From the NCBI RefSeq assembly GCF_028372415.1, contig NC_092872.1, positions 12,994,979 to 13,058,978 of the forward strand: a DNA stretch of 64,000 nucleotides. Direction: 5' to 3'. Shown one piece after another: positions 1-52,490 of the stretch. The stretch is from Notamacropus eugenii (Eukaryota > Chordata > Mammalia > Diprotodontia > Macropodidae). The translations under genes were made by a program, and so were the position numbers. Below the pieces are notes generated by a model. That model was not told the origin of the DNA, did no database searches, and worked only from the letters and a program-made list of their open reading frames with translations. How positions within the stretch are numbered: the first letter of the stretch is position 1; each line of letters starts with the position of its first letter.

Positions 1-605
1 TATCTCTATTTGTAGATGATATGTCTGTTTATCAAGAAAATTTTTGAGTCAACTGAAAAATGAATATGAATAGCTTTAGTAAAGTAGCAAGATACAACAT
101 AAAGACAGAAACAAAAACCAACAGTATTTCTGTGTATTACAAATACAACTGGAAATAAGAGGCAGAAAAAGAATTAGTATTTAAATTTTTAAAAGGTTCA
201 TTCAGTATCTGGAGTTGACATACACAGGACTCATATAACTAATAACTTATACAACAAAATTTAAGGGGGAGAAATGGAAGGTATCTGGAATTACTCAAAT
301 TATTTTATACGTAGATAATTACCAAAACCAAAAATGGGGAAAAAGTTTATGAAAAAAGTAAGTAAGACTTCACAGGAAACACATAGCACAGCATTTCTAT
401 ACCTCAAAGTCTATTATAAAGCTAGTCATCAAAATTATTAAGTACTGAATATAAAAAAAAGGAAAGGTGCTTAATGGAATACTACATAAACAAGACCCCA
501 AAACAAATGTGTACAGCTCAGTATCCTATAAACTCCCAAAACACCAAGAATTCACTACTGGACAATAATTGCTAGGCTAACTGGAAAGCAGTCTGGCAGG
601 AATTT
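1..605 (+). mobile_element. Old L1 ORF2 fragment, reverse transcriptase region
   Basis: The left edge begins inside an L1 reverse transcriptase: the frame starting at base 5 reads SLFVDDMSVY, the FADD catalytic-motif region. Further on, around 545-600, a frame reads close to DNNCxANWKAVWQ, the segment seen intact at 25485. Stops and frameshifts are frequent, so the copy is dead. The 7SL retrocopy follows it. Confidence 0.75.
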
Positions 606-617
606 GCTTCAATTACA

Positions 618-925
618 TCTTTTTGTTGACGCTGGGTCTCAATATCTTATCCAGGTTGCACAGGTAGCAGTCACTCACATATGGCCCCACTGCTAATCGG
701 CACAAGAGCTTTCACTTGCTCTGTTTCTGCTGAGGACCAGTTCTCTCTATCATGGCAATCTAGTGGCGTCTTAACAGTGTCACTTGATATCCGTGCAAGA
801 CTTTGTGCAGACACCCAATTAGCTTAGCTCACCTCAGAATTCCTGGGTCAAGTGAGTCACAGCCTCAACATACCACCCAGCCCAGTACAGATTACGTTAA
901 GTTCAGCTAGATCACATCTTACATT
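618..925 (-). pseudogene. 7SL RNA (SRP RNA) retrocopy, decayed
   Basis: The reverse complement follows the whole 7SL RNA in order. Plus-strand landmarks are GCTGGGTCTCAATATC (3' end), CCCACTGCTAATCGGCAC (matching CCCACTACTGATCAGCAC), CTTGCTCTGTTTC, TTTGTGCAGACACCC (matching TTAGTGCGGACACCC) and CAGAATTCCTGGGTCAAG. Many scattered substitutions and small gaps show it is an old, non-functional copy. It sits among L1 fragments, consistent with L1-driven retrotransposition. It does not have the dimeric Alu structure, as expected outside primates and rodents. Confidence 0.8.
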
Positions 926-959
926 ATATATCACTATAAATTCCAAAAGACTTATTCCA

Positions 960-1110
960 CCTAAGTGTGTTATAGGATTAAAGATCTGAGCTTTAAGTGA
1001 CTTTGAGGTCGAATCCCTCATTTTGCAGAGGAAGAAACCAAGGCCCAGGCAGGTGAAGTGACTTGTCTAGAGTCACAAAGCCAGGTTAGTTCAGTGTCTG
1101 TGGTATGAAA
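960..1110 (+). repeat. MIR-like CORE-SINE fragment
   Basis: Contains the typical 'gcagaggaagaaacca', 'aggcccaggcaggtgaag' and 'cttgtctagagtcacaaag' words of the MIR/CORE-SINE tail. Confidence 0.6.
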
Positions 1111-1964
1111 AAATGAAAACATGCTACCTACCTCCTAATAGAGAGATGAAAGATTCAGATTGCAGAAATAGACAAATTTGGGGGGAGAGGGTCATGGTCA
1201 ATGCGGACATTTGTTTTGATTGAGTATTCATGTTTGTAATGGTTGGGTTTTTGTTTTTTTGGGGGGGCTCTTTCTTAACTTGGGAGGCGGGTTTGGTGTG
1301 GGAACATGAGAAATCAGATCTTGGCTGATTTTTCAGAGAGCTAAAGCCTCATGTGGAAGTTCTGTTAGTACCCTAATATGCAACCCCCCTAATCTGATTA
1401 AGAGCAGCCATCTGAACTCTTAAAACCTCTTATCTGGTTTTCAACCTCCTCTGAGACATTCTCCTTTTGTGCCTCCAGGGTCCCTGGAAAATCACATTCC
1501 TCAACAGAGAAAACAGAAGCAAAGCAAGAAGTGAGTATTTCTACCTTCTTCCCTTCCTTTACCATGATAAGTAAATAAAATCAAAATAGAGATCATGTCC
1601 CCTCTTGTATTTTCATTTTGTCCCTAACATAATTAAGAAAGTCCTATGTATTGTCCTTGTTATTCCTTAATCTCACATCATTCTAACCTTTTATAATGCT
1701 ATTTATTATTCTTACAGACACTTGTCATTTTTGTTTTCATCCTCTTAGCTCCTCCCAGCTTAAATCTTTCACGTGACCTTTAAAAATATCTAAAATGACT
1801 TCTGAGTTCCCTGAATATCCTTTTAGACACCTTCAACTTTTGTTCCCCATGGAGATAGTTTTTTATTTGTATTGCTATAACTTTCATTCTTCAGAATTTT
1901 GCTTCATTCCACTGTCATCCCAATGTACATTTCACAATTAGATGTACAAGTCCCAAATAGAATC
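1110..1964. other. No gene recognised
   Basis: AT-rich, low-information sequence with short homopolymers (T and G runs near 1250-1267). No exon, RNA or clear repeat family was recognised. Confidence 0.4.
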
Positions 1965-2275
1965 CTTTAAAAAAAAAATTTACTAAGTATTGCAGTGGAA
2001 TAGATGAACAAAAACTACAGACAAACACCACTATGAATATTAAAGTAAAACTATTGAATAAAATAGTAGAAAAAATGCTACATCAATATACCCGAAAGAT
2101 TATTTACCAGGGTGGATCAGTATTAGGAATTTAGGGATGGTTCGATATGAAGAAAACTATAAACACAATATAAAACTAATACCAAAGACAATAAGATTTG
2201 ATGTTTTTAAAAGACAGAGAGAAGGCCTATGACAAAATAAAACACGTGTTAAAAATTGAAAGTACAGAAATAAAT
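1965..2275 (+). mobile_element. Old L1 ORF2 fragment
   Basis: Decayed reverse transcriptase coding sequence (the stretch holding 'caccactatgaatat', 'ctacatcaatatac' and 'gcctatgacaaaat'), with several in-frame stops. It is followed by an inserted repeat that opens with a transposon-like 'gtgccaggcactgtgctaag' stretch at 2337-2356. Confidence 0.7.
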
Positions 2276-2279
2276 GGAC

Positions 2280-2785
2280 TTTTTTTTACTATGACAAGGA
2301 AGGTAGGAAACAAGCATTTATTAATCACCTACTATGTGCCAGGCACTGTGCTAAGCATTTTATAAATATCACAGAATGGCGGGGCTTACCCTTTGGAACT
2401 CTGGGTAGCTGTTAAGGAGTGGACCCCCCTTTCCCTGTTTTAAAAACCCAGATGTTGGTGTTTTTCTCTCTGGGACCTCATTTTCCCATCTGACTACATT
2501 TCCTATGACATCTGATTGTAGTTCCCAGAACTGAAATCTTGTAAGACGTGTCTAGATTCAAGGAAATGGTGCCACAGAGAATAAGGCCCCAACGGACCTC
2601 AGTGATCTATGAAGAAAGAAGTGGAGTTTCTAAGTTGTATAGGTTGGGAAACTGAATTCAGAGGTAGGCATAGTATGCTGCAACAATTTCCAGATTGGGG
2701 TTCCAGAGAACCCAGACTCTCAACTTCATGTACAGACAACAAAAAGAACCCCATACCGAATATGCCACCTAGTTAGCTGTCTAAC
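2280..2785. repeat. Short ancient repeat start plus unclassified insert
   Basis: 2305-2365 carries the 'cctactatgtgccaggcact' word of an abundant ancient family. The rest to 2785 is unclassified and separates two L1 pieces, so it is probably another insertion. No coding signal. Confidence 0.4.
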
Positions 2786-2789
2786 AGTT

Positions 2790-3540
2790 TCTATCTAAAA
2801 CCAAAAACCAGTATCAAATGTAATGAAGAACCTACTAGCAAGATAAGCAGATGAGTGGTAAAATAAGGACGTCAATTTTTATTACTTTTATTTGATGTGG
2901 ACCTAGAAATGTTAGCTATAAGGACAAGAAAAAAAATTCAGGGAATAAGCACAACTAAGTGAAAATATCTTCTATCTGTTGATACAGTCATTTAGAGAAT
3001 TCCAGATCCTCAGCGAAATAAAAATTAAGTGAAACAACTTTACTAAAGTAGAAGAGCACAGAAATGACTGAACTTTCAGTGTATTACTAGAAATACCCAG
3101 AAAAATGAGGGAGAAAAAGAAATTTCATTAAAAAAATAACTATATCTGGGAGTCAATCTCCTAAGATACACTCACGACATAAAACAATTATAAAACACTA
3201 ATTATAGAAATAAAGACTTACATAAATGTAGAGATACTAAATGTATATGCTGGGTCAAAGCAATATAATAAAAATGGTATTACTACCTAAATTATACAGA
3301 TTCAGTACCAATTACACTACAAAGGAATTACTTTATAGAGACAAAATTGTCTTGAGGTTGAGATCAAGAATCTTAAGGGAACTAATGAAAAAAGGAGAAC
3401 TGAAGGGGCCTAGCATTAAGCCAAATCAAACTATATTATGAAGCATTAATCATCATTATTTGCTCATTAAAACCATATACTGATTAAAAATTAGAAAAGT
3501 TGATCAATGGAACAGATTAGGAAGAATTCTTAACTGAGCA
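2790..3540 (+). mobile_element. Old L1 ORF2 fragment
   Basis: Continuation of decayed L1: a frame at 3241-3441 keeps NIIKMVLLPKLYRF, corresponding to NIIKMTILPKLIYLF in the younger copy at 25120. Stops break it on both sides. Confidence 0.75.
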
Positions 3541-3544
3541 ATTC

Positions 3545-4270
3545 AACTTTTTTTTTTAATGCCTACTATATGCCAAGTATTGTGTCCTAGCACAATACCT
3601 TCTGGGAATAAAAACAAATTTGAAAAAGTCCCTGTATATAAAAAATAAATACAAAGAAATTTCAGAGGACAGAGGTGTCAAATATTGGGGAAATCAGGAA
3701 AGGTTTTGTTTTTTTTTCCTAAAGAAGGTGGTGGTTAAGTTAAATCTTGGAGACAGCTATACATTCCAAGACATAATGGTGACGAGCAAGATTGTTTCAG
3801 GACATCTCTTTGGAACAGCTAGCGGATGAGTTTGCCTGGAGTACAAAATGCAAGAGCAAAGTAATACGTACTTACTTTGGAAAGACAGGTTGGAAGCACA
3901 CTGTAAAGGGCTTTAAATCTTAAAAAAGGTGTTACAATTTGATCTCAGACTTAACAGTGACAAGCCACTGAAGCATCTTGAGCACTTGTGTTTTAAGAAT
4001 AGCAGTTTAGTAGCCATGTGTTACATGGTTTGAAGAGGGGAAAGACTAGAGACCAAGGTCACCAATTAGAAAGCAATTAAACTAATGTATGCCACAGGTT
4101 ATGAGAGCGACTTGGGGTAGCTGTACCCTAAAAAATGGGAATGGACAAGAAAGACATGGAGGCATGGAGACAGAATCAATAGATTCTGCAACTGATTAGC
4201 TATAGGAAGGGAGTGAAAGGTAAGAGCTAAGGAAAATAATTGTGAAGGTTGTAAACATTCATTACTGGAA
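3545..4270 (+). repeat. Ancient interspersed repeat ('ctactatatgccaag' family) inserted in L1
   Basis: Starts with 'tgcctactatatgccaag' and runs through landmarks shared with copies near 34640 and 47390 ('aaggctt..', 'ggctttaaatc', 'ccactgaagca'). It separates two parts of the surrounding L1. I could not name the family securely; it is non-coding. Confidence 0.5.
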
Positions 4271-4279
4271 GAACAGTAA

Positions 4280-5165
4280 TACCATTAGTAGAAATCTTGC
4301 CATTTTGAAGAGGGGGGGGCTTAAAAGAAAAGGCAATCAAAATATAATACTCTACGGCTCAATAAACTCAACAATTTCTTTTAGAATAATGATTCTCTAT
4401 TTGACAAAAATGCTTTGAAAACTGGAAAACAGTTTGGAAGACATAGGACTTGAACCAACATCCTGTGTCATATTCTACAGTAAACTATTCTGAGGGAACA
4501 TAACATCTAAACATAAAAGACTATACCAATAAAAAAAAAAAGGTGAATGGAAAGAGGCAGCTCTACAAGTATGGCTGCGGAGGATTTTTAACTAAACAAC
4601 GAATAGAGATAATTGTAAAAGATAAATCTGATCATACTAATAAAAATTTCTGCAAAACAAAACCCAATATAGTTAGAATATGTTATTGAAATATAATTGA
4701 AAAAAAAAGAAAAAGCTATTGGGGGAAAATCTTCAAAGCAAGTATCTGTTATCTAAGATCACAAGACCATAAATTTAGAGCTATATTAGAAATATTACAC
4801 ATATTTGAGAATTAGAGCCAGAGGGTATGAACAATTTTAAAAAAAAAACCTACCAACTATAAGAGAAAATGTTCCAGATCACTAATAATAAAAAAAAAAA
4901 ATAAGCCATCTAAAGTTTTAATTCACATTTCATTGGTTGACAAAGATGAGAAAGGACAAAAAATGATTAATGGAGAAAACGCAGCAAGATAGACAAAAAT
5001 AATGAACTGTTGGTAGAGTTGGGAACTGTTCCAATCACAATGGAAAAAACCCTTGGAATTATATAACAGTCATTCAAATGTACATCCTCTTTGAGCCAGG
5101 AATTTTACCAGTAGGCATTATGACTGAATATGAACAGAGTAAAATATTACTGATATAAATGACAA
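4280..5165 (+). mobile_element. Old L1 ORF2 3' part
   Basis: Translated fragments keep FDKNAL / NWKTVW-type words near 4400 and NELLVELGT near 5002, the region that in a young L1 holds the C-terminal cysteine motif. Heavily mutated. Confidence 0.65.
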
Positions 5166-5169
5166 ATAT

Positions 5170-5690
5170 TAAGAATTTAGGAAGGGAGGCAGAGCCAAGA
5201 TGGTGGAATAAAAGGATGAAGTACAACAAGCTCCCTCTCCACTCCCAAACTCCTCCAAAGAGATCTAGAAAAGCCATGTAACCAAATCCAAAAAAATTAA
5301 GAGAAAGTAATTTTTCCAGTGTAGGTTAGCATAGGAAGAGAGAGGTCTAAGTGACACTGGTATCTGGCCAGGAAGGGATCAGTGAATATTCCAGCTCAAG
5401 GAAACACTGCGAATCAGAGCAAGAAGACATCTCAAATCCAGTATAGTGGAGCCTAAATGTGTGTGGGGTGCAGAAACAGGTGCCAAATGACTGCTCTTGC
5501 TCAATACCCAGTTCCACCTAATGAGGTCCCCGGCACTAGGCTGAGTATCAGGCCTAAATCAAAAACTAACTACTGGATATTTCAAAGTAGAAGACCTGAA
5601 AGCATATATCAAACAACACATCCAAAACAGGACTTTTTATTATTTTTTCCCATTCCTTACCTCCAAACTTTCCTATTTCTATTGAAGGTA
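5170..5690 (+). mobile_element. L1 5' UTR fragment
   Basis: Begins with GGGAGGCAGAGCCAAGATGG at 5178, the marsupial and eutherian L1 5' end signature (gagccaagatgg, YY1-type site), and continues as a 5' UTR-like sequence to about 5690, where RTE sequence takes over. Confidence 0.6.
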
Positions 5691-5694
5691 TTGA

Positions 5695-6600
5695 AGCTGA
5701 GATGCAACAAAGTATGGATCAGTTCTCTGCTGCCTGTGCTAATTTTGACCTAATAATTAACACCAAGAAAACACAGGTGCTCCATCAGCCACCACCACAC
5801 CATCCATACATGGAACCGTCGGTTACAACAAATGGAGAAGTTTTGAATGCTTCACTTACCTTATTTCCAGGGATGTACACATTGCCAGAGCTAGCTCAGT
5901 GTTTGGGAGACTCCAAAGAAAGGCTTGGGAGAGAAGAGATATTAGACTGACTACCAAACTGAAGGTCTACAGAGCTGTTGTGCTGATCTCTTATATGCCT
6001 GTGAAACATGGACAGTCTACCAGTGCCATGCCAGGAAACTGAATCACTTCCATCTGAACTGTCTTAGGAAGATTCTGAGGATCACCTGGCAGGAAAAGGT
6101 GCCAGATGCTGAGGTCCTTGCTCAAGCTGAACTGCCAAGCATTCAAGCTATGCTTCAGAGAGCGCAACTCTGATGGGCTGGCCACATTGTTCGAATGCAA
6201 AATGTCCATTAGCCAAAAAGACTATTTTATGGAGAACTCTCATGGGGCAGGCGATCACAAGGTGGCCAGAAGAAACGATACAAGGACACTTCAGGTCTCT
6301 CTCAAGAACTTTGGATCTGACTGTGCAACATAGCACAGGACCATTCGGCATGGGGTGCCCACACCAGAAAGGGTGCTGTGCTCTTTGAGCAAAGCAGAAT
6401 TGAGACAGCACAAAGTAAACATAGGATGCACGAATTTGAGAAATCCACTCCAAATACTCACACGGACTATCTGTGCCCAACCTGCGGTACAGCATTCTGA
6501 GCTTGTATTGGTCTGATCAGCCACAGCCGGACACACTGAAACATCACTTTATCGTGGTGATGTCACTGTGGCCTTCTTCAAAGATGAAGGACGACAACAA
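5695..6600 (+). mobile_element. RTE-family LINE, 3' end of ORF2
   Basis: Broken frames read NFDLIINTKKTQVL (end of the reverse transcriptase, typical of RTE), then LKVYRAVVLISLI, CQETESLPSELS and in another frame AQAELPSIQAM-like sequence. The 3' tail ends with 'cttcaaagatgaaggacgac' and a short ACA-rich repeat, as RTE elements do. Several frameshifts; not active. The derived SINEs at 18.4, 23.1, 28.2 and 41.8 kb share such 5'/3' words. Confidence 0.82.
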
Positions 6601-6604
6601 CAAT

Positions 6605-7560
6605 CACCACCCTTTTGGTCAGTATTAAGTACTTACTGTAAGCCACCTTACTAACTGCTCAGGATACAAAAGTAAGTGAAAATGCTGCCTGGCCTTAGTG
6701 AGCTCATTTTCTGATGAAGGAGACAACATGCAAAAAATGGAAATAACTATGAATATGGGGAAAGTATTAAATAAGACCAGGAAGGGAGCGTAGAACCAAG
6801 TCACTGGTGCATTTTCCCAGGGAGCAGTCAACATGAAGTCACTAAAGGTTTTCTGTGACTAAACATGTACATAAAGGAGATGTCTGACAGTGACATGAAA
6901 GGCAGCAGCAATGTTTCTGGTAAGACCTGTTAGAAGACTCCATGTGGTAATTTCCCACGTCATAAAAGCTATCTACCACAGTACCAGCAATTAAGAAGAA
7001 AAGGGGGAGACAGAGATTTGAGAGGACTAACTTTCCCAACTTTATGCACATGGAAGACATGTCTAGCAGCAGTGTCAAAGATGATATGGAGATGGAAGAC
7101 TTCGTATAGTCAGGGGTGAAAGGAGAAAAGATTTGAAACAGGGACTGTGGAATATGCTGTTAGGTATTTACAAAGGTAGAAAAGAGCAGCAATGAGGGTC
7201 CACTAACTTGTAATGGATGGAATTGGTCCCATTTTATAACTTTTTCTAAAGATACTAAGCTGCCCTAGAGCAAGGGGTGTGTGGGGGTGGGGGAGGTAGA
7301 ACTGGATGAGGGAAATGAATGGTACAGACTGTGTAAAGGGGAAAAGAAAGAGGGAAAGAAGAAAGGGACAGGACAGAGGAAGACATGAGAAAAAATAAGA
7401 ATGATTAGTGGAACAAAGACCTAGAGTAGACAAAGGGCACACACGGGGGCATTAGGTAATGATAATAAGCTAACATTCATCCTCAGAGAAAATGGGAGAA
7501 GTCACAGAATTTAAAGCATGGTAGAGGGAACTGTATTAAATAAATAGCATGAATTTTCTC
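6605..7560 (+). repeat. Ancient interspersed repeat, degenerate
   Basis: The left part (6620-6780) follows the same consensus as 3545 and 47390: 'taagtacttactgtaag', 'gatacaaaagtaagtg', 'gagctcattttctgatg'. The right part is too decayed for a firm call. No coding signal. Confidence 0.4.
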
Positions 7561-8870
7561 AGTAAAGGAGGAGGGTTGAGTTCCTACATCTAAGGGAATA
7601 GATAAATTATTATCTCAATAAAACAGGAAGTTGAACAAATGTTTAGAATAACCCATGGGGCATATGACAAGAAGTCACCAAGAGATGAATAAATGCCTTG
7701 CTGAGGATATGAGATAGCACAGTGGATCACCAGTATTTATGGTGTGGGGGACACTTTCTGCCGGTGGAAAATTCTTCTATGTTCATGAAAAGCTGTGGCT
7801 GGAAACAGGTCATCCCTGGTCACCACCTCTCCAGGGATGAAACTGCCTCTCATTTAGCTATCTAGGTGCTAAACTCATACACAAGACTTTTCAAGCTTGA
7901 CAGACCAGGACAAAGCTGTCCTGGTACAGGGTCCCAGTACAGTGTCCTTAGAATGTTTTTATCATTTTAATATCCAAACAGGCTTGCATTAAAGGAGGTT
8001 GGTATATACCTAAGTGGTAAATGAGGGAAAGGTGCCGAAGGAGTAGTCACAGACGAAGGGCCGCTCACAAAGCCCATGGACCATCATAAATAACAATGCT
8101 ACTTATGTAAAGGGAATTTACTTTGCTTTTCTTTTCTCAGTCTAAATGCAAAATGAATTTTTCTGGAAAAGTAAGAACCTACAGAGCCGCTGGCTACATA
8201 AGAATATGAAGATAATAATGAGAGAAGAGGGAATAGCTGAGAAGGAAGACAAATATGATTTTTGCTAGCCAAATTCATAGCTAAGGCCTAAAAAATGTAA
8301 TACTGCATCATAAACACTGAAGGACAGTTCCTTTGGTTTTTGAAATCTATAGTTGGTGATCTAAAGAATAAAAATAAATAACAGAGCTTTGTCTACATAA
8401 TTAAAACAGGTTGAAAGAGAAGAAATGTAATTTTTGATTACATGAGAGAAACCTCTCCAAAATATAATCAGGAAGAAAAAAAAATCCACAAGCAACATTT
8501 AAGTAATGTATGCTTAGGCTTAGAAATTACATCCCCTCGTAATTAAGCTCAAGAGTCGTGGGAATAGTATCTCTCCTCAGAATACAGGTCTTCCTCCCAA
8601 CCTGACTCCCAAAGCTGTAATCCAGGGAAGCAACTCTTGTAGAGAAGTGATCTGGCAACTTCTTCAACTGGTGCTGTGGACCCTGTCTCTCCCTGTCAAC
8701 CACAGCCTTCTTGGCAACCATAGCTACCGAATACTCAGAAAATAAAGTTCCTGAAGCCAAAATCTTTGACTCTGGCAAACAGCAGGAAAAGGTATGTTTT
8801 TATTCAAGGAAATAACATTGAAGACACATCATTATCTGCTATACCTTAAGGACCACAAGGTCCTCCACTT
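7560..8870. other. No gene recognised
   Basis: Unclassified sequence. Short open frames here (for example the minus strand at 8527-8778) have no recognisable protein family and no convincing splice context. Confidence 0.4.
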
Positions 8871-8879
8871 GACTGTCAA

Positions 8880-9030
8880 CTAAAATCTCCTATTATGTTA
8901 TCACAAGCCCTTAGTAGAATGTGAGCTCTTTAAGAGCAAGTACTATCATGCTTTCTAGTTGTATCCCCAACACTTTGCATAATACTTTGAACTTAGTAAA
9001 TGCTTAACAAATGCTTTTTTCAGTCCTTCT
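8880..9030 (+). repeat. L2-like LINE 3' end
   Basis: Words 'gaatgtgagctctttaagag', 'tgtatccccaacactttgca' and 'agtaaatgcttaacaaatgc' match the L2/MIR 3' terminal consensus. Confidence 0.65.
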
Positions 9031-9299
9031 TTCCTTCCCATGTATGGAAAATTTGTAAGTAAAGAACTTGCTCTTGAAATTAGAAAGGTAATAGCATATC
9101 AATACCATTTACCACAACCTATTACAAAGGGAGATGCAACAGTCTACTGTAGGTACATGTCACAATATGACATCAACATTATTAACAACAACCAACCACC
9201 ATCATTAAATTCTCCACTGTACAGTGAAAAAAATCCTCATTGATCTTGCCTAATCCTTGGCAAGGATTCTAAATTTCCAAATCCAATAACCTTTAGTCA

Positions 9300-10200
9300 A
9301 CACTCACCTTCCTTAATTTCTCTGTAGCATGTAACCTTGTTGATGTAATCTCTCCAAGCTTTTACCCAAGTGAGATCCTGGTGGCTATTACCCACTGGCC
9401 TCCAGAACATACTCCTTCTTTTATCAATTGGTTCAGTGTCTGACACTTGGTCTCCCTTCTCCACTCCAAATCCTGTCCTCCAACTAGGAGAGTTCAATAT
9501 CCACATATACTGATGCTTCATCAAACAACATAACCTCCCAGTTCCTTATTCTTACCAAGTCTTCTACTCTACCCCAAGCACACACAGGTCTAGTCACAGC
9601 ATTGAACTCTTCTAATCTTCCCCTTCAAGTATTCACCAGTCTGATCAAGAACTCACATTCCATTACCCAGTTATGACCAATCCTTCCATCTCTTCCTGTG
9701 CCCTTCTCGCTCCTCTTCTAAAGCCATGCTTCCTCACCACAAATGACCTTTCCCCTCAGTACTTTTCCAGGCCATTATCTGTTCTGGCTACACTACCTCC
9801 CCTACCCCCACCTCATGCAATTTCCATTCCACAGCTGGCAAGTTCAACTATACAGACAGATATTGCTTCCCATATAAAGGGGCCGTTTGGGAGACCTTCC
9901 CCTTCCTTCATGGAGTTCTATTATGACCCTGTCCCCCTTCATGGCTCCACACCCAGAGCTGAAGCTGCTTTAGTGCCTGATTCCTCCACCTCCCCAAGCA
10001 GCTTCAATGCCTGGAGCAGCAGACCCTGGTGGGGGGTCCTGTTGGCAGGAAAATCCAACTTGTGCCAACTGTCTCTAGTATCTCCTCTTGAATCCCTCAC
10101 TCTCTTGTCTTTGCCAAATCCTGACCCTGGATTACTTAGATCTATTTCCTCCTGTTTTCCTAATTCTATGAGGTGGAAAAAAGAACTGGAATAATTCATA
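9300..10200 (+). mobile_element. L2/CR1-type LINE, 5' part (decayed)
   Basis: A frame around 9490 reads EFNIHIY, resembling the GDFNIH word of LINE endonuclease domains; the C/T-rich, low-stop character matches the L2-like copy that continues at 10515. The 173-codon frame at 9673-10194 is part of this element and is not a host gene. Confidence 0.5.
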
Positions 10201-10204
10201 AAAC

Positions 10205-10515
10205 TGCACTCACAAGATCCACTAAAAATTTATTATGTATTTTATGCTATACATCAAGATAATCATTGGACTAATTATCCTGCTTCTGACTTCTGGAGTC
10301 AGAAGACTTGAGTTCAAATTCAGTCTCAGATACCACCTAGCAAGACACTTGACCCTGGGCAAGTCACTTAAGTTCTCCCTCAGTTTACTAAAATGTAAAA
10401 TGGAGATAATAACTGACCTCTCAGCATTGTTATGAGGGTCAAATGAGATCATAATTTATAAAATGTTTAGCAAAGTGTCTGGTACATAGTAGGAACTAGA
10501 TAAATGTTTACTCCT
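10205..10515 (+). repeat. tRNA-derived / CORE SINE
   Basis: Contains 'ggagtcagaagacttgag', 'ttcaaattcagtctcaga', 'ccctgggcaagtcactta' and a MIR-like tail 'atgagggtcaaatgagatc' to 'ggtacatagtagg'. It interrupts the L2-like LINE. Confidence 0.8.
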
Positions 10516-12200
10516 TTCTCCTTCCTACTCTACACATGAGCTAATTCAACCCCTCCTCTTTTCAAGCCTGTTCCACTCTTCAAACTGAGGAACTTGCCTC
10601 AGAAAGTAGAAGCCATCTGCTGTCAGTTCCACTTTCTTCCCTTCTTGTCTCATAACCTGATGACAGCATCCTCTATTTCCTACTTTATTCCAGTTTCTCC
10701 TTTCTCCTTATCAAGGCTACACTGAACCCCTGATGTCATCCCTTCCTACCTTCTCCAACAGACTGCACTTCTATCATCCCCTCTATTTCAAATCTTCAAC
10801 CTCTCCCTCTCCCTATCTACTGGTTCCTTTCCTGCTGCCTACACACTTCTCTCCCCCATCCTACAAAAAGACGCTCATTAGAGCACATCATCCTCAAATA
10901 TATATTATCCTTTCCTTTCACAAATTACTTTATAATGACATCTACCCTCAATGTCTCCACTTCCTCTCCTTTTAACCTCTTCTAAATCCTCCCTCTGCAG
11001 GTTGACTTTAGGTCTTATCACTCAACTCAACTCAAACTGTCCTTTCCAAAGTTACTAATGATCTCTTAAATGCTAAATCATATAGCCTCTTCTCAATCTT
11101 CAAGTTTCTCAGTCTCTCTGCAAAGTGCCACTGTTGAGACCACTCTTTCTGGGAAGCCCAGGCCCCTCTGGCTGACATTGCCCTTTTTTGTTTCTTTTCC
11201 TCCTACCAGTCTGCCCCCTTCTCAGTCTCCTCTGCTGTATATTTATTCACATCAGCCATACTCCACAGCTCTGTCTTAGACTCCCTTCACTTTATACTCC
11301 ACACTTTCTCACTTGATGACCTTGTCAGCTGTGTGGTGATCTAGACATCCAGTCTAGTCTCTCCAGTGTTCCAGTCCCACATGACTGACTCAGACATTTT
11401 AGACTGGGTTGTTTTGTCTCACAGACATCTTAATTCAGTACATTAAAAACAGAACTCATCAAAAGCCACCCTCATTTCCTCAGTCTTCCTTACCCCATAT
11501 ATCCAAATTAGTTGATAGATCTCTTCCTAACTGTCCTGAAACCACCTCTTCCCTCTACTGACATGGTAGTCATTCCAGTTGAGGCCTTCATCATAACTCA
11601 GCTGGCCTACTGTAACAGCCTCCTCATTAATCTATTTCTCTGCTCCACAGAGCTGTCCAAGCGATCTTCCTGATGCCTGAGTCTGACTATACCATCTCCT
11701 TTTCCTACTGCTAGGATAAAATTCCAAATTCTGCTTAGTATTTAAAGTTCTTCACAAACACACTCCAATCTACATTAGGCTGTGCCCATCACTCTCCTCC
11801 CTTTACACACTCTTTGGCTTTTGCAATGTTCCTCCTCCTGTCAAGTTTCATCTCTGTCTTTGCACTTGTTGTCCCTAACCTTAGGTAAATAACTACATGT
11901 CATATCTCTTTCCTCATTTCTACTTTCCTCAAAGATCAGCTCAAAGGCCACTTCCTTCATGAGGCCTTTCTGATCCCTCCAAATAATAATACCCTACTCC
12001 CCAAATGACCTTTGATTTATTTTGCATTTTATTATACATCTAGGTGTCCCTTCTTCCAAAGCCCAAACAACAACAAAAAAAATGGAAGCTCCTTCTGAGC
12101 AGTAGGTAGTTCACTTTTTTGCCTTTATATTTCCTATGTCTAGAAGAGTTCCAAACACATAGCAAGCACTTAACAAATATTTGATTAACTGAAAATTTTA
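10515..12200 (+). mobile_element. Long L2-family LINE copy, 3' part
   Basis: About 1.7 kb in sense orientation. Landmarks are 'ttaaaaacagaactcatc' (11440), 'tcctcaaagatcagctcaaa' (11927), 'tcatgaggcctttctgat' (11958) and the 3' end 'agcaagcacttaacaaat' (12160). Reading frames are broken. Length is notable for a family this old. Confidence 0.68.
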
Positions 12201-12479
12201 AGATAAAAGAGAAAATTTTACAGAAGCAGACAAGGGAAGACAAATTGCTTCCTCCTTGATGAGGAGCAACTGAGGGAGTCAAAGGCAGATTTTAATTGTT
12301 AATATATAGAAGCTTTCTAAAACACAACATTGAATTTCAGCTTTAAAACTTACATATTTTAAAACAAACATGGAACTATGACATCTAAGGTTTTTAGTCT
12401 AATTCCAGATTGTTTGCATGTCACATCCCCCTTTCTGGTAGAATGTAAGCTCACTAAATTCAAGAACTATTTCTAATTT

Positions 12480-12690
12480 TGTCAATCAACAAAAATTTAG
12501 TAAGTGGATACTATGTGCCAGTCACTGAGCACACAAAATGAAGCAAAATACAGTCCCTTTTCCTCCAGAAGCTCACAATCTAATGAGGGAGACAACAAGC
12601 AGATATGCACAAACAAGCTATTATAATGGATGAATTGGAAATAATTTTAAAGAGGGAAGGTGCTAGAATTAAATGTAATTAATTTGTCTT
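12480..12690 (+). repeat. Ancient interspersed repeat fragment
   Basis: Carries 'actatgtgccagtcactgag', 'agaagctcacaatctaat' and 'gagggaaggtgctagaatt', as in the copies at 12755 and 47390. Confidence 0.6.
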
Positions 12691-12754
12691 TGCACATGAA
12701 AGATTCTGGAAGTATTTAATTTTCTACAGGATTCTTCAAAAGGATTCAGTGGTC

Positions 12755-13075
12755 AATAAACATTTATTGAGTACCTACTACATTAATCAACAGGTTTACA
12801 AAAAGAGGCACAAGACAGACCTCCCTCCTCAAGGAGCTCAGAATCCAAGGGGAGAGGAAGCAAATAAAAGTGTACAAACTAAACACAGGATAAATGGGAA
12901 ATGAGAGGAGGAAGGCACTAAGAATTCAGAGGGATTGAAAAAGGCTTCCTGGAAAAGAGGAAATTTTAGTTGAGACCTAAGGAAGCCAGCAGACTGAGTT
13001 GAAGATGGAATGAGGACAGGCAAAGAAAAAGCCTGGGGCCAAGAGACAGTGTGTCTTGTTCATGAAACATGTTTC
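12755..13075 (+). repeat. Ancient interspersed repeat, second copy
   Basis: Contains 'caataaacatttattgagta', 'caaggagctcagaatcca', 'aaaaaggcttcctgg', 'ttgagacctaaggaagcca' and 'agtgtgtcttgttcatg'. Same family as 12480-12690 but extending further 3'. Confidence 0.65.
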
Positions 13076-13706
13076 CTTTAAGAAGGAATACAGCTAATGT
13101 GGTATTTAATATACTCAGTAAGTATTCCACCATCACCAATACTCTCAGCACCATGGAGGCTACAAAAGACGCTTCAATAAAAATGACATTTTTCCCTTAG
13201 GAAACAAGGGACTTTTAAATCTGGCATTTATTTTTATGCCCAGAGTTACAAAAATGATTTTTGCTCCAGCTAGAACAAAGTATACAGTATCAATAATTTC
13301 TCTAGTTCTGCTACTGTTACAAAGCATATAGTAAACTCCAACGAATGTCAATGACTGAATCTTTTTTGTCAGTTAAAATTTCAAGTTCTCATTAAACAAG
13401 CATTTTGACACAGTCAACAATTTTGCCCATGATGAACTAAGTCACAACAGCAACAACTTTATCACTCTCCTGTTGTCATATAACAAAGTTTTATACCTGA
13501 TTGTTACTTTAAGGGTACATCAGGCCATGAGGCTTTGCCCTCTAAAGTCCTCTTTACCTCCAATCTTCTGACAGAACTTCGTCAAATTGATCTAAAACAC
13601 TTACTTGCAACATAACTTTTTTTTTTGTATTTCGTATTTTATTTTCCCCAATTACATGTAAAAACAAATTTTAAAATCTGTTTTTTTTTTTTAACATAGG
13701 AGCTCA

Positions 13707-13905
13707 GGGCAGCTAGGTGGCACAGTGAATAGAGCACTGGCCCTGGAGTCAGGAAGACCTGAGTTCAAATCTAGCCTCAGATACTTAATACTTACTACAC
13801 ATAGTATATACTTATACTTAATACTAGTTGACCTTGGGCAACTCACTTAACCCCAATTGCCTTGCCTTCCACCCTCGAAAAACAATTATTAATAATAATA
13901 AAAAA
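13707..13905 (+). repeat. Marsupial tRNA-derived SINE
   Basis: Opens GGGCAGCTAGGTGGCACAG, then 'agagcactggccctggagtc' (A box like) and 'gacctgagttcaaatc' (B box), and ends in an A-rich tail. It looks tRNA-like but is a SINE, not a tRNA gene. Confidence 0.92.
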
Positions 13906-16249
13906 CTTTGAGTTCCAAGTTCCCTCCTTTCCTCTCCCTCCCACCCTTGAGAAGGCAAGCAAGTTGATAAACAACTATTCTACTCAAGAAATTATATTTT
14001 ACTACTGCCCAAAAGATACAGTTCAAACCTTTCATCAGCTACATCTTCCTCACTCCTTCCATCTTATCTCCTACCATTTCCAAAAGAAATCTTCCACTCC
14101 ATTTTCGTCCTCAACGGGTCCACTCCTTAGGATGCTTTCCTCACAGCTCACTTTGGAGAATTCAAGTAATATAATTCCTTCCAGGGCCATTTCAAGTTTC
14201 ATTTCCTCTATCACAAAATCTTCTTGATAATTCTAATCAGTTCACATTGATCTTTCTCCTCTGTGAATCCCTGTGCCCCTTATCTGTACCACAATCTCAT
14301 TTACTAGTGTTGTTTTTTCCAACTGTTTCCAATACAAGTGTCTTTCTTGAGCAAAAGCCAAGTTCTGCTTATACAAGGTGGAGTATGGGAGAGTGGAAAG
14401 AGAATACTACCTTTGTAATCTTGGACAAATCACAACCTTCCTGAGAGTCTGTGGTTCATAAAATAATGCTTTAGCAACAGAATTAAATGAATCTCAGTTC
14501 TCATAGTACACACCTCATAGTCCTGAGAGAGCAGATGCAAGTATAACCTATCTTTTGCATGTAGCACAATAGCTTGACCACATTAAATGAAGTGTTTAAT
14601 AAATGCTTGCTAATTGCTGAATGATCAAATACCCATAGTAATAAAGAAAAAAAAAAACAGAGTTTAGAGTCAGGAACAACGAAATACCCAAAGACTGTCT
14701 TTTGTGTATGATGACAACCTCTATCAGCAGGGTACACTGAATTATTTTCCTAGTTGTGATGATGGATTTGCAATGATTTAGGCACACACTATTGCACAGA
14801 TCCCGTAGTGATGACTTAACACCCAGCTTAAAAACCCCTGACTGTTGAGGTTAGGGGTAAAGTTTCTGTTCACTAAATATGGAGATTCTGCTTAATACCA
14901 TAACCAAGCTAATCCACCATACAGCACTCGTCCATAAAATTAACTAGGTAATAGTAGGCTAGCCACCTTTCTGCCTTATCTAAGAAAATGTTAAAATGTG
15001 CCTAATATCAAATAGAAATACAGTAATGATTTATCCTTAACATTTTTCCTTCCACTAGAATATGACCTTCTTCAGGTAAAGTCCTACTCAGACACCTCAT
15101 CCTGTTATTGGAGGTGACCCTGAATTCTCAGAGGCTTTGCCAGAAGAGTTCAAGTTCTGGCAAGCCCTTCGGAGGCAGGAAGCCTTTGAAAATAAGCCTG
15201 GGGATGGAAAACCTAAGAATCAGTCTAGCTAAATTCAAAGGGGGCCTGTCACCAGGCTGCCCAACAGGTCATGAATTTTATTTGGCCATCGCAACTCATT
15301 AAGACTTGAGTGACTTAAGTGTAGAAATATTTTAAATCTAAGTACCTATACAGATTAAATTTTCTTTTTTAAAAAAGGATATGACCTAAATTTTCATTTC
15401 TAAAACGAGACAAAAGGAAATACATCAATAGATCAGACATATTTTGACAATGAGAACTTAGTTATAATCCTACTGAAAAACAATGAGATTAGCTATTAAG
15501 ATGATTGGCTTCTTCAAGATCCAAGTATCTCCAAATCTATGAGGCTTCATGCTACATTATACCAGAGGTTTCCAATTTTCATTTTATTTGGCATCATACT
15601 AAACTGTAGTATGTTTTTAAAAACAATGTTATTTTCCTAACTTGATGGTTGACAGCCAGTTTATATTTTAACCTAACCTTTCACTCCATTTTCCCCTTCT
15701 CATAGCCCAAATAATTCCTCTTCTATTCAAGCTACCACTCACTGCTCTCCTCTAAAAAAATTCTTTTTCAAATCATCGTCCAATTCTTGCTTTCCAGGGC
15801 CATCACCACCAGGTTCTACATCCTAGGAACAACAAAGCAAATCTCACGGCTTACCCGGACTTTCCAATGGGAAACAAAATTATGGACATGGACTTCTACT
15901 GTAAACAGAAAACCTACATACATTTGTAGGCAAAATTTCCACTCTGGAAAGGACAGCTACCTCTCTAAATTAATCCCAATATAACAGGGATGGGGGAGAC
16001 CTAGAAGGCCACAGGTTCCTCAACCGTGTGATAGAACGTTAGTATCTCTCCATTAGGGTTCGTTCAATGAAAGCACAGTTACTCCTTTCTGAGTTGTCTG
16101 GTATTTTCTGTAAACTATCAAAAATGACAAAGGCTCGGTCTGACAGGTGGTAACAAAGGTGAGAAACCTCAACAGGCCGTCTCCGAACTGCAGCCAAAGT
16201 GCCTAGGACTGAAGCACACAAACTGCTAGTGCTTGGAGATGCGGGCCCG
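13906..16249. other. Intronic/intergenic DNA with no recognised gene
   Basis: If the KANSL1-like gene is real, this is the start of its first intron on the minus strand. It holds only weak repeat remnants (a MIR-like piece near 14370-14460) and AT-rich sequence. I looked on the minus strand for the next exon of a KANSL1-family gene (the WKW...RW.WLQ segment) and did not find it. Confidence 0.45.
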
Positions 16250-18420
16250 CACGGACTTCTAACCTCGAGATCGGCCAAAACTTCTGGATGCCCCACCGGG
16301 TCAAAAGCACGGCCGTCGGACCCGACGCCGACCTGGAACTGGCAGGGTTAGGAACACGCACTCGCCAAAGGAAGGGTATTTCCTTTACGCCTAGACCCAG
16401 AAGGGAGAGGGACCGGGGAGAAAGTGGACCTTTCCTGGGGGCCACGGGCAGAGATCATTTTCCAGCACTGGCTTTAGAGAGCAGGGTCAGAAAATTCCAG
16501 ACTCGAGTTGCAGCAGACGCCGGGACGCCCGCCCAGCACGGGGAAGACCGAACACTCCGCAGCGGAGTCCGCCACGGCACTGCCCAGACCCACGCTCCCG
16601 GCCGGTCGCACCCGCCCCCGGGGAGGACGAGGTGGCACAGCGCCGGCACAGAGCCCGAGGAGTTCCGGAGCTGGAGGACGAGCGTCCGGGAGGGCGCCCC
16701 GCGGGCCCAGAGCAAGGGCGGTGACCGGGCGCGCACCGCGCACCGCGCCGGGCCGGGCAGCTCCGCGCCGCGGCCCCACGACCCCGCCCTGCTGCCGGCC
16801 TCGGCGCTTCCCCGGACGCGGCACTCACCCGGCGGCGGCGGGAGGCGGCGAAGGCGGAGGCGGAGGCCGCCCGGGGCCCGCCTGGCTCCGCAGCGCCGGC
16901 TCGTCCTCGTCCTCCTCCCCGCCGGAGGAGCAGCTGCTGCTGCTGCCGCTGCCGACGCTGCTGCTGCCGCTACTGCAACAGCTGCTGCCGCTGCCCGTGT
17001 CCGTAGCGTCCGAGTCGCAGTCCCCCTGCACGGCCCGGAGCAGGGCGGTGGCGCTGCCCACCAGCCGCCGGAGCTCCGCGGCCCGGGCGGCGGGCGGGGG
17101 CGCCGGCGGCGAGGGCGGCTCGGGCCCGGGGGCCAGGTGCCGCCAGAGCCCGGCCAGCTGCTGCCGGACGTGCCGCTCCACCTGCCGAGCCCGAACCACC
17201 TGCAGCCGGCGGCAGAGCCTCCGCGCCCGGCCCCACAGCGCTGCCTGCCGGCCCCTCAGCGCCGCCGCCGCCGCCTCCCCCTCCGGAGCCGGCCGCTGCT
17301 CGGGCCCGAGCTCTCGGCGGCGGCCTCCCGCCTCCGGCCTCCACAGCAGGTCGTGGGCACGGGGCCCGGCCGCCGCAGAGGCCGCGGCGGCTTCGCTCAG
17401 AGCCGGGGCCATGGCCGAGGAGGTGGCCGCCATGCGGGTCTTCGGGGAGGGCGGGCGGATCGTCTTCTCCGTCCCCTCGGGCCCGGCTCCTCAGTGCGGG
17501 CGGCTCGCGGCCGGCCGCCCCATCTGGCCGAGGCGCGGAGGCGGCGCGCCGGGTCCGTCCCTCGGCCACATAAGCAGCAAGGGCGGTGGGTGGCGGCGGC
17601 CCAGGCTGGAGGCCGCCTCTCCCCGCCCTCCCCCTCCCGGGCGGGCGCGGGGGGGGCCGAGGAAGCACGGGGCCGCGGGAGGGGGGAGGAGGAGGAACAA
17701 CAATACTCCATTCACTCCCCACCCACCCCGTCACGGGTCCTCCCCTCCTGCGCGCTTCAGCTGCGCTCGCACGCGCCACTCATGCGCGTCCCCGCGCCAG
17801 ACCTCGGCTCGCACTGCGGCCCGCCCCGGCGCGCCCCGGGCCATTCAGAGGGCGGGGAGGGGCCTTCATCAGAGAGGGTCGGAGCGCGGGAACCAATCGG
17901 AAGCGGCGCCGCTCTCCCCCCCGCCCCTCCCGTCCCGCGGAGTCCGCCTGCCCCGGGCTCGGCTCCTGGGGGAGGAAGAGGTCGACAGAGGCTCCGGGAG
18001 CGCGCGGCCGCTGCCCGCGGCGGGCTCGCGCTCAGACTGCCCGGCACCGGCCGTACAGCAGGATCCTGCGTGAAGCCAGGCTGTGTGTCTGGACGAGACC
18101 CGCAGACGTCTGCCTGGAGCTGCCGAAGAAGGCGCTTTGCGACCGCCGGCTTCGAGAGCCCTTCTCCGGGAGAGGGCCTGTCCAGCTAGAGCAGACCGGG
18201 GTCCTGGCCGGGCGCCGGCGCTCAGGCCACGCCACACCAGAGCGGCAGCGGCGGCCCTGCGCTCTGCAGCCCGTCTCCAGGTTCCGTGCCAGGGGACGGA
18301 CGATCAGGTGTGAGATGCCTGGCCCGCTCGGGAAGAGGAGCGGACTCACAGACAGCCCTGGGGCACAGACCCAGGACCAAGCTGGCCAGAGGCGGGCTCG
18401 CTCTTCGCTGCCGAAGAAGG
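16250..18420. promoter_or_regulatory. CpG island 1, promoter region of the KANSL1-like gene
   Basis: GC content and CpG frequency rise sharply near 16250 and fall after about 18700. The island covers the minus-strand KANSL1-like first exon, its intron start and its presumed 5' UTR and promoter (above 17433). A CCAAT box on the plus strand lies at 17893-17897, and GCGC-rich NRF1-like words occur near 17765-17800. No TATA box is apparent. The transcription start cannot be placed from sequence alone. Long plus-strand frames here are composition artefacts. Confidence 0.75.
16829..17433 (-). CDS. First coding exon of a KANSL1-family (NSL complex scaffold) gene, probable third paralogue
   Basis: Seen: an open frame of about 202 codons runs from ATG 17433 to a GTGAGT splice donor at 16828-16823; the exon ends in phase 2. 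A second ATG at 17412 has the stronger start context (GCCATGG) and gives MAPALSEAAA, matching KANSL1 MAPALTDAAA and resembling KANSL1L MTPALREATA. Residues 58-98 form a basic helix with RARRLCRRLQVV and RQVERH, close to KANSL1 RARRLQKRLQVV and KQVERH. Residues 119-145 (AAELRR, SATALL, DSDATD) resemble KANSL1L (AAEIQR, SATGLL, DSDATD). A Ser-rich stretch (147-170), an acidic run (173-178) and a Pro-rich tail follow. Known: KANSL1 scaffolds the nuclear KAT8/MOF acetyltransferase NSL complex; its KAT8-binding PEHE domain is C-terminal and would be outside this window. Inferred: a third family member, since the mix of similarities fits neither known paralogue. Odd: the roughly 250 residues between the KANSL1 N-terminus and helix are reduced to about 40. 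No exon 2 was found in the left 16.8 kb. Confidence 0.83.
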
Positions 18421-18690
18421 CCGTGCTACACGATGGCATGACTGGCACCTGACTCTGTGTTGAGTGAGGGAGGGCTGTGCAGGTCACCAGCCTCACTTTT
18501 CCTCCGGAGCCATGTGAATCCAGTGACCAGATATTCATCAGGATGACTGGAGATGACCCAGGAGGAGGCGGCTGGGGTAAGTGACCTGCCCAAGGTCACA
18601 CTGCTAGTGAGTGCCAAGTGTCTGAGGTGAGATCTGCACTCGGGCCCTCCCGCCCCCTGCTCTGGTGCACGGCCCCCCGCTGACTCGGAG
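18400..18690 (+). repeat. RTE-derived SINE in the flank of CpG island 1
   Basis: Same order of words as the copy at 23109: 'gccgaagaaggccgtgc', 'gagtgagggagggctgtg', 'caggtcaccagcctcact', 'ccagtgaccagatattca', 'cccaaggtcacactgcta', 'tctgaggtgagatctg'. This copy is unusually GC-rich. A fused tRNA-SINE-like segment forms its 3' half. Confidence 0.88.
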
Positions 18691-24773: not shown

Positions 24774-24868
24774 GTCCTCAAGTTACATCACATAAAGGTC
24801 TACTTACCCTGCTCTAAAATCTATGATCCTATGGTCCCTGGTCATATGAAAATTAGAAATACACCCCC

Positions 24869-41031: not shown

Positions 41032-41046
41032 ACATTAATGCATCTT

Positions 41047-41790
41047 GAATAAGAACTAAAGTGGTAAGATAGGGGGAAAATCTTTCTACCAATTTCTCTG
41101 ATAAAGGTGTGGTATTGAAGACATACAATTAAAAAATATGTTTAAGACTACTATCCCAATTGATAAATGGCCAAAAGATATAAATAAATAGTTCTCAAAA
41201 GAAGAACTATAAAGTATTCATAATCACATGAAAGGATGCTCAAAAATCACTAGTAATGAGAAATGCAAATATAACAACTCTGAAGTTTTACTCTGCACCC
41301 TGCAAATGAACAAAGATGATGAAAAAATGGCAATACTCAAAGTTTCGGAGTTGTGGAAGGATAGGTACACGAATAAGTTATTGGTGAAGCTGTGAAATGG
41401 TACAACCATTTTGGAAAACAAATGGGAATTATACAAATGAAGTGAATAAAATGACCACAATCAGAAGTTCCATTATTGGGCTTATACCCTAAGGAAGCCG
41501 TCATCAATATGAAGAAAGTCTTCAAGTACTCCAAAATATATATAACAGCACCTTTTCTGTGACAGCTAAGAATTCAAAACAAAGTATACGTACATCAAAT
41601 GGAGAATGGCTAAACAAATTGTGGTACATGAATGTAATGGGCCACTACTGTGATGATGCGTGTGATGAATACAGAGAAGCATGGAAAGGTCAATATGGAC
41701 CAATGCAAAGTGAAGTAAGCAGAGCCAAGAAAGCAACGAAAGAATGACATACCAAAAAACCAAAATAAAATGTTAACAAAATTATAAAGC
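41047..41790 (+). mobile_element. L1 ORF2 3' part (continuation after the nested element)
   Basis: Resumes the L1 interrupted at 38863. Frames keep NGEWLNKLWYMNVMGHYC and REAWKGQYGPMQSEVSRAKK near the C-terminus, with several frameshifts before them. An A-rich tail lies near 41760-41780. Confidence 0.82.
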
Positions 41791-52480: not shown

Positions 52481-52490
52481 AAGAGGGCTG

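What the first reader, a model, noticed from the sequence alone, without database searches (positions are those of the whole stretch)
16829..17433. A third KANSL1-family gene in a marsupial
The minus-strand exon encodes a protein start that aligns to KANSL1 in the helix (RARRLxxRLQVV, KQ/RQVERH) and to KANSL1L in the next block (SATxLL, DSDATD), and to both at the very N-terminus (MAPAL / MTPAL). It has an open frame, a strong start context, a CpG island and a consensus donor, so it looks like a working first exon and not a processed copy. To my knowledge only KANSL1 and KANSL1L are known in human. A third NSL scaffold could give a different KAT8 complex in marsupials.
Basis: partly seen in the sequence, partly recalled or inferred. 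Interest (0 to 1): 0.92.

Follow-up and report, generated by a model that had tools for sequence, protein, structure and literature searches.

The report
Third KANSL1-type chromatin scaffold gene
The exon is the start of a real tammar wallaby gene, a third relative of the chromatin-regulator scaffolds KANSL1 and KANSL1L; it is not special to marsupials but old and widespread in land vertebrates, and it was not seen in placental mammals such as ourselves.

Summary
So it is a spliced first coding exon, not a retrocopy. One correction: the gene is not a marsupial novelty. Database searches found it in marsupials, echidna, tuatara, lizards, snakes, turtles, birds, frogs and a caecilian, probably coelacanth, perhaps sharks; no placental is among the rows listed. 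Its tree follows the species tree. Human KANSL1 is excluded from the marsupial clade (AU p 7.8e-100); human KANSL1L less firmly (p 0.04-0.11). The WDR5-contact arginine is kept in 120 of 121 aligned proteins. Best reading: an ancient vertebrate paralogue, possibly a 2R ohnologue of the MAPT/MAP2/MAP4 paralogon, acting as an alternative KAT8-NSL scaffold and lost in placentals. [quoted passage not shown] nine paper searches listed none that describes it.

The parts
16829..17433 (-). first coding exon of the third KANSL1-family gene (residues 1-201 plus two bases of codon 202), phase-2 donor
   Evidence: 100% identical to residues 1-202 of wallaby protein P0003
16829..17412 (-). the same exon from the second in-frame ATG, which has the stronger start context and begins MAPAL as KANSL1 does
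   Evidence: contexts; which ATG is used is an inference
17134..17283 (-). predicted long helix, residues 51-100, holding the KANSL1-like RARRLCRRLQVVRARQVERHVRQQL block
   Evidence: AlphaFold2 model, ten-residue block means of pLDDT 77-88 over residues 51-100; tblastn with recalled human KANSL1
17023..17091 (-). second predicted helix, residues 115-137, in the KANSL1L-like SATxLL...DSDATD region (tblastn match 16996-17076)
   Evidence: block means of pLDDT 65-72, so less sure
16933..16994 (-). serine-rich low-complexity tract in the exon, seen by TRF as a triplet/21-mer repeat
16823..16828 (-). splice donor GTGAGT
   Evidence: the residue junction G|YPKAEWQW in P0003 fits
17491..17493 (-). 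in-frame upstream stop (TGA), 20 codons before the first ATG
16251..18500 (.). CpG island over the 5' end of the gene
1..16828 (-). intron 1 (part): no further exon of the gene matched in the window, so the intron exceeds 16.8 kb
   Evidence: tblastn of P0003 against the window, (only weak chance-level matches beyond the exon)

Best explanation
This is the first coding exon, with its CpG island, of a third KANSL1-family gene: an ancient vertebrate paralogue of KANSL1 and KANSL1L, possibly a 2R ohnologue, kept in amphibians, reptiles, birds, monotremes and marsupials (probably coelacanth too) and lost in the placental lineage. The protein most likely works as an alternative scaffold of a KAT8 (MOF) NSL-type complex. 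Its PEHE domain would bind and activate KAT8, its conserved arginine (equivalent to KANSL1 R592) would sit in WDR5, and its N-terminal helices plus the WTWLQ helix would recruit other subunits. Shown by computation: the exon, the continuation in the wallaby protein model, the PEHE domain, the conserved WDR5-contact arginine, the tetrapod-wide clade. Inferred: expression in wallaby, KAT8/WDR5 binding, the 2R origin, and the loss in placentals and its date.
For: Wallaby P0003 (841 aa) matches the exon at 100% and carries a PEHE domain at E 1.6e-20. The only PDB matches at E<=10 to the 46-sequence profile are the two MSL1 chains 2Y0M_B and 4DNC_D, in the PEHE core, though weak (E 0.24, 0.56). The R592 equivalent is R in 120 of 121 proteins, the other being a gap; human KANSL1 R592 mediates WDR5 binding (PMC6607013, passages). 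Tree of 29 of the 121 longer proteins plus two recalled human sequences: tetrapods 100/100, amniotes 100/99, echidna+marsupials 100/100, coelacanth with tetrapods 96/98. AU rejects marsupials+human KANSL1 (p 7.8e-100; 2.9e-9 with echidna on well-filled columns). Wallaby-opossum identity: WTWLQ segment 48/48, PEHE region 99/104, WDR5/Cys region 107/114, C-tail 145/161, linkers 77/85 and 107/126, exon-1 part 169/200. Five unnamed proteins, frog- and skink-like by BLAST, come from contigs of 2.0-4.5 kb, short for a gene with a long intron, so they look like cDNA. No placental name appears among the 67 hits or the 120 listed of 731.
Against: The wallaby genome could not be searched, so coexistence with KANSL1 and KANSL1L in one genome and the neighbours of the gene are not shown. 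AU tests against a marsupial-KANSL1L clade are borderline (p 0.054; 0.042 and 0.112), and KANSL1L has the mammal-type residue at 4 of 13 mammal-derived columns. The coelacanth and shark proteins may be KANSL1 instead: grouping sharks with human KANSL1 is not rejected (p 0.219), nor is sharks+coelacanth+human KANSL1 (p 0.236), and at 6 columns that separate the tetrapod clade from sharks+coelacanth KANSL1 has the shark/coelacanth state at 5. The exon-1 part is as variable as a linker. The PEHE match to MSL1 in the PDB is weak, and no binding or marsupial transcript was tested. Absence in placentals rests on protein databases with length and word filters, and 611 of 731 hits were not shown.
Confidence: 0.75

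Rival explanations
1. The gene is simply the non-placental orthologue of KANSL1L, and human KANSL1L is a fast-evolving placental version, so there is no third gene.
For: AU tests do not clearly reject marsupials+KANSL1L (p 0.054; with echidna 0.042 and 0.112). Human KANSL1L (recalled) shares the SATxLL/DSDATD block, a C-terminal KNR ending, and the mammal-type residue at 4 of 13 mammal-derived columns.
Against: At 9 of those 13 columns KANSL1L does not have the mammal state, and two of the four shared ones also occur in KANSL1 or coelacanth. KANSL1L is no closer to the mammalian members (223/613, 36.4%) than to the sauropsid ones (168/414, 40.6%, different column sets). The N-terminal helix of the wallaby matches KANSL1 at 18 of 29 positions and KANSL1L at 11 of 29 (counted by eye). 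Of 20 bird species with a contig length, 13 copies lie on contigs of 153-180 Mb, and the Xenopus tropicalis copy on one of 154,486,312 bases; from memory these are bird chromosome 2 and Xenopus chromosome 6, whereas KANSL1L/MAP2 lie on bird chromosome 7 and Xenopus chromosome 9.
Confidence: 0.08
2. It is KANSL1 itself, or a recent marsupial duplicate of KANSL1.
For: Same domain order; MAPAL start and N-terminal helix are KANSL1-like; some database entries are named KANSL1.
Against: Human KANSL1 with marsupials is rejected (p 7.8e-100; 2.9e-9 with echidna). The clade includes echidna, reptiles, birds and amphibians in species order.
Confidence: 0.02
3. A pseudogene or isolated fragment: the exon is open by chance in GC-rich DNA and the gene is dead in wallaby.
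For: Openness alone is expected in about a fifth of shuffles (423 of 2000). No second exon lies in the window, and no wallaby RNA was examined.
Against: The 841-residue wallaby model continues with conserved domains, and wallaby and opossum are 48/48 and 99/104 identical in the WTWLQ and PEHE blocks.
Confidence: 0.03
4. A genuine third paralogue, but one that no longer serves KAT8: a divergent scaffold with another partner.
For: The stretch before the first helix is short in the amniote models shown: helix motif at residue 26-94 in eight, leaving out the tortoise fragment at 124, against 297 in recalled KANSL1 and 334-392 in coelacanth and sharks; frogs and caecilian are mixed, 94-330. The KANSL1 N-terminus binds PHF20 and MCRS1 (PMC6607013, passages).
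Against: The PEHE core and the WDR5-contact arginine are kept.
Confidence: 0.12

Closest known systems
[quoted passage not shown] human 17q21.31)
   Same: MAPAL start, N-terminal helix RARRL..RLQVV.A.QVERH, EWxW..RAAI..RW.WLQ helix, AARxRP motif with the WDR5-contact arginine, PEHE domain (recalled human sequence)
   Different: 35-38% identical to wallaby over the best aligned stretches of 447 and 273 columns; the stretch before the helix is much shorter in the amniote models shown; separate clade from the tetrapod members
KANSL1L (human 2q34)
   Same: same domain order; SATxLL and DSDATD block; C-terminal KNR ending (recalled human sequence)
   Different: 31% identical over 778 columns; N-terminal helix more diverged; separate locus by memory only; orthology not firmly rejected
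MSL1 (scaffold of the MSL KAT8 complex)
   Same: the PEHE core (tPsWr...lEDtsd..Y..rH.kyE..eR.rWd in the profile) aligns to the MSL1 chains 2Y0M_B and 4DNC_D; from memory these are complexes with KAT8/MOF
   Different: only the PEHE core matches, weakly (E 0.24 and 0.56)

Membership tests
KANSL1 family | PEHE domain that binds KAT8 | tested here: met
   domain present: Pfam PF15275 at E 1.6e-20 (wallaby), 8.7e-19 (echidna), 4e-24 (X. tropicalis); binding itself not tested
KANSL1 family | arginine that contacts WDR5 (human KANSL1 R592) | tested here: met
   R in 120 of 121 aligned proteins, one gap; role of R592 from passages of PMC6607013
KANSL1 family | conserved WxW...RWxWLQ...[16 protein letters not shown] segment | tested here: met
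   strict WTWLQAQ in 118 of 122; alignment; that it defines the family is from memory
KANSL1 family | N-terminal helix before the DSD(A/V)TD block | tested here: met
   wallaby motif from residue 69; the strict expression matches 87 of 122 and DSDAT 106 of 122, the rest unmatched; helix predicted 51-100
KANSL1 family | physical binding to KAT8, WDR5, MCRS1, PHF20 | not testable with these tools
   no experiment
KANSL1 orthologue | groups with human KANSL1 beside the mammals | tested here: not met
   AU p 7.8e-100, 2.9e-9 with echidna; human sequence recalled
KANSL1L orthologue | groups with human KANSL1L beside the mammals | tested here: inconclusive
   best tree does not, but AU p 0.054, with echidna 0.042 and 0.112
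2R ohnologue next to MAP4 | linkage to MAP4/MYL3, as KANSL1 to MAPT/MYL4 and KANSL1L to MAP2/MYL1 | not tested
   genome search did not complete (15 calls); paralogon described in passages of PMC4815063

The most novel reading that the evidence does not exclude
A third KANSL1 ohnologue from the two early vertebrate genome duplications, in the MAP4 paralogon, survived in frogs, caecilians, lepidosaurs, turtles, birds, monotremes and marsupials but not in placentals. [quoted passage not shown]
Probability: 0.55. Interest if true: 0.7.

Novelty: new member of a known kind. Interest (0 to 1): 0.56.

Why it matters
The papers seen here describe the NSL complex with KANSL1 (plus KANSL1L) as scaffold, from human and fly work. 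A third scaffold in many tetrapods, apparently gone in placentals, would be a clean natural experiment in scaffold redundancy and dosage: whether loss of one KANSL1 copy is milder where the third gene exists is directly testable. It would also fill the empty slot beside MAP4 in a known paralogon (MAPT-KANSL1, MAP2-KANSL1L, MAP4-?). [quoted passage not shown]

Tried and rejected
Searches of the PDB and Pfam with the exon alone gave nothing useful, nor did P0003 alone against the PDB. A scan of the window for the next exon by motif and by tblastn found none. The fold search of the AlphaFold model gave 12 matches at E<=10 and none at E<=0.001; mean pLDDT is 50 and 556 of 841 residues are under 50. 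Rfam and tRNA scans of the window were empty. Processed copy: rejected, because the wallaby model continues over a donor with an intron of over 16.8 kb. Recent KANSL1 duplicate: rejected by the tree. Marsupial-specific gene: rejected by hits in many other classes. Codon-level selection could not be measured because no orthologous DNA was fetched. KANSL1 and KANSL1L from other species could not be fetched: one search listed only 120 of 731 hits and the three protein searches were then spent. Reading the shark and ray proteins as members is left open (AU p 0.219 for grouping them with KANSL1), and the coelacanth one is probable only (AU p 0.236 for sharks+coelacanth+KANSL1).

Full report
What is in the window. 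On the minus strand, 17433-16829 is an open frame of 201 codons plus two bases, ending at a GTGAGT donor. An in-frame TGA lies 20 codons upstream and the whole sits in a CpG island of about 2.2 kb. Two in-frame ATGs open it; the second, which begins MAPAL, has the better context. In such GC-rich DNA an open frame of this length is unremarkable (423 of 2000 shuffles), so the case rests on homology.

Homology. Searching the exon alone, with the tool's length filter, gave one relative: an 'uncharacterized protein' of the tortoise Chelonoidis abingdonii, E 6.8e-21, 62% identical over 89 residues. A second search that admitted longer proteins gave 67 at E<=10. The best, P0003, is a tammar wallaby protein of 841 residues (isoform X3); the exon is its residues 1-202 at 100%, so the window is from tammar wallaby or something indistinguishable here. 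No later exon is in the window, so intron 1 exceeds 16.8 kb. The gene is therefore spliced, not a retrocopy.

How widespread. The 67 hits are marsupials (Notamacropus, Petaurus, Sminthopsis, Monodelphis, Phascolarctos, Sarcophilus), echidna, tuatara, lizards, a snake, turtles, birds and frogs, plus three without a name (P0050, P0051, P0062), frog-like by BLAST. A profile of eight members gave 731 hits at E<=1e-6, of which 120 were listed: the same groups plus a caecilian, coelacanth and three sharks/rays; four listed rows have no name (P0050, P0051, P0093, P0110), frog- or skink-like by BLAST. I read through both lists and saw no placental and no teleost. A placental orthologue should score near the echidna one (1295 bits), while the weakest row listed scored 832, so a full-length placental member among the candidates should have been shown. 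This does not cover truncated models, proteins outside the length filter, candidates cut by the word filter (7991 scored), or genomic remnants. The 611 hits not listed presumably include KANSL1 and KANSL1L. That galliform and passerine birds, crocodilians and platypus are not among the listed names is not interpreted, since rows are 90%-identity clusters and the list was cut.

Phylogeny. The tree is unrooted. The clade follows the species tree: tetrapods 100/100, amphibians 96/97, amniotes 100/99, echidna with marsupials 100/100, tuatara with squamates 99/98, turtles with birds 100/99, and coelacanth with tetrapods 96/98. Human KANSL1 is outside, and holding it with marsupials costs 107.6 log-likelihood units (AU p 7.8e-100; 2.9e-9 with echidna on well-filled columns). 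So the split from KANSL1 is older than the split of amphibians and amniotes, if the root lies outside the tetrapod clade. A FastTree of 120 proteins (P0002 and P0062 left out) also keeps both human sequences outside.

What the tree does not settle. For KANSL1L, marsupials+KANSL1L gives p 0.054, and with echidna 0.042 and 0.112. KANSL1L carries the mammal-derived residue at 4 of 13 informative columns, the ancestral one at 1 and another at 8; two of the four are shared with KANSL1 or coelacanth. It is no closer to mammalian than to sauropsid members (36.4% of 613 against 40.6% of 414 consensus columns). The sharks are not placed: grouping them with human KANSL1 is 1.8 units worse (AU p 0.219), and without KANSL1L they lie with KANSL1 on one side of a branch (96/94). 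Even sharks+coelacanth+human KANSL1 is not rejected (5.6 units, p 0.236), and at the 6 columns that separate the tetrapod clade from sharks+coelacanth, KANSL1 has the shark/coelacanth state at 5. So coelacanth membership is probable, not shown.

Position, by memory only. Of 20 bird species with a contig length, 13 copies are on contigs of 153-180 Mb; the exceptions are four accipitrids (48-110 Mb), Gavia (63 Mb) and two short scaffolds (Apteryx, Aptenodytes). The Xenopus tropicalis copy is on one of 154,486,312 bases. I recognise these as bird chromosome 2 and Xenopus chromosome 6, while KANSL1L with MAP2 is on bird chromosome 7 and Xenopus chromosome 9. None of this was tested.

Why 2R is a fair guess. 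Passages of PMC4815063 describe a paralogon of 17q21 (MAPT, KANSL1, MYL4), 2q (MAP2, KANSL1L, MYL1) and 3p21 (MAP4, MYL3), with no KANSL1 relative at 3p21. A third KANSL1 gene lost in placentals would fill that slot. That paper names KANSL3 as a third paralogue; to my knowledge KANSL3 is not a sequence relative of KANSL1. Linkage to MAP4 was not tested, because the genome search did not complete (15 calls).

How it most likely works. KANSL1 is a largely unstructured scaffold that binds KAT8/MOF by its PEHE domain, WDR5 through arginine 592, and PHF20 and MCRS1 by its N-terminus (PMC6607013, passages). The third protein keeps the PEHE domain; the only solved chains its profile finds at E<=10, weakly (0.24, 0.56), are MSL1 chains 2Y0M_B and 4DNC_D. 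It keeps the WDR5-contact arginine in 120 of 121 proteins, the other being a gap. The strict AARxRP motif is in 117 of 122 and WTWLQAQ in 118 of 122. Strict TPSWR is in 95 of 122: of the 27 misses 18 are birds, five frogs, two anoles and two truncated models; the 11 such birds displayed all read VPSWR. AlphaFold2 gives mostly disorder (mean pLDDT 50) with better-scored helices at 51-100, 204-248, 467-487 and 635-664, and a weaker one at 115-137. Wallaby and opossum are identical at 48 of 48 positions in the WTWLQ segment, 99 of 104 around PEHE, 107 of 114 around the WDR5 motif, 145 of 161 in the C-tail, 77 of 85 and 107 of 126 in linkers, and 169 of 200 in the exon-1 part, so constraint is strongest in the binding segments and loosest in exon 1 and one linker. 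I infer an alternative KAT8-NSL scaffold. The stretch before the first helix is short in the eight amniote models shown (motif at residue 26-94; the tortoise fragment P0002, at 124, left out), mixed in amphibians (94, 131, 330), and long in recalled KANSL1 (297), coelacanth (334) and sharks/rays (379-392). If PHF20 or MCRS1 need that stretch, the complex would differ there.

Expression. Five unnamed proteins (P0050, P0051, P0062, P0093, P0110) come from contigs of 2.0-4.5 kb, short for a gene whose first intron exceeds 16.8 kb in wallaby, and look like frog and skink cDNA. This is indirect; no marsupial RNA was examined.

Novelty. [quoted passage not shown] Nine paper searches over open-licence PubMed Central papers listed none that, by title and start of abstract, describes a third KANSL1 gene; I read passages of PMC4815063, PMC6607013, PMC13380446 and PMC12478385 only. 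Subscription papers were not searched. I rate it a new member of a known kind, raised in interest by its age and its apparent loss in placentals.

Noticed in passing
window 53698-54171 within 51001-55000: A GC-rich stretch of about 4 kb (GC 0.61-0.81, CpG o/e 0.45-0.78) contains a 31-base minisatellite of about 15 copies; no gene was recognised in it (its ORF 52576-53766 gave no Pfam match).
   Followed up: partly
window 39858-41141 (-): An L1 ORF1-type protein, 427 codons open (Pfam Transposase_22 2.9e-13, L1 dsRBD-like 2.4e-9).
   Followed up: partly
window 24857-26524 (+): A 555-codon open frame that looks by eye like the C-terminal part of an L1 ORF2; Pfam gave only a weak unrelated match.
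   Followed up: no
P0035, P0036, P0072, P0075, P0076, P0082, P0092, P0098, P0114, P0118, P0120: These 11 neognath bird members all have VPSWR for TPSWR and EKP for EKL in the otherwise conserved PEHE core, while Rhea, emu, ostrich and kiwi keep TPSWR and EKL.
   Followed up: partly
P0003 residues about 418-432: A cysteine cluster (CSCEWPHTCILCECK) is largely fixed in the third protein (C418, C420, C426 invariant in 46, C429 nearly so) and only partly present in recalled KANSL1 and KANSL1L; it might be a small metal-binding motif.
   Followed up: no
P0002 (Chelonoidis abingdonii LOC116828392): The tortoise model stops soon after the first exon and starts upstream of the shared Met, so it looks like a truncated annotation of this gene.
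   Followed up: no
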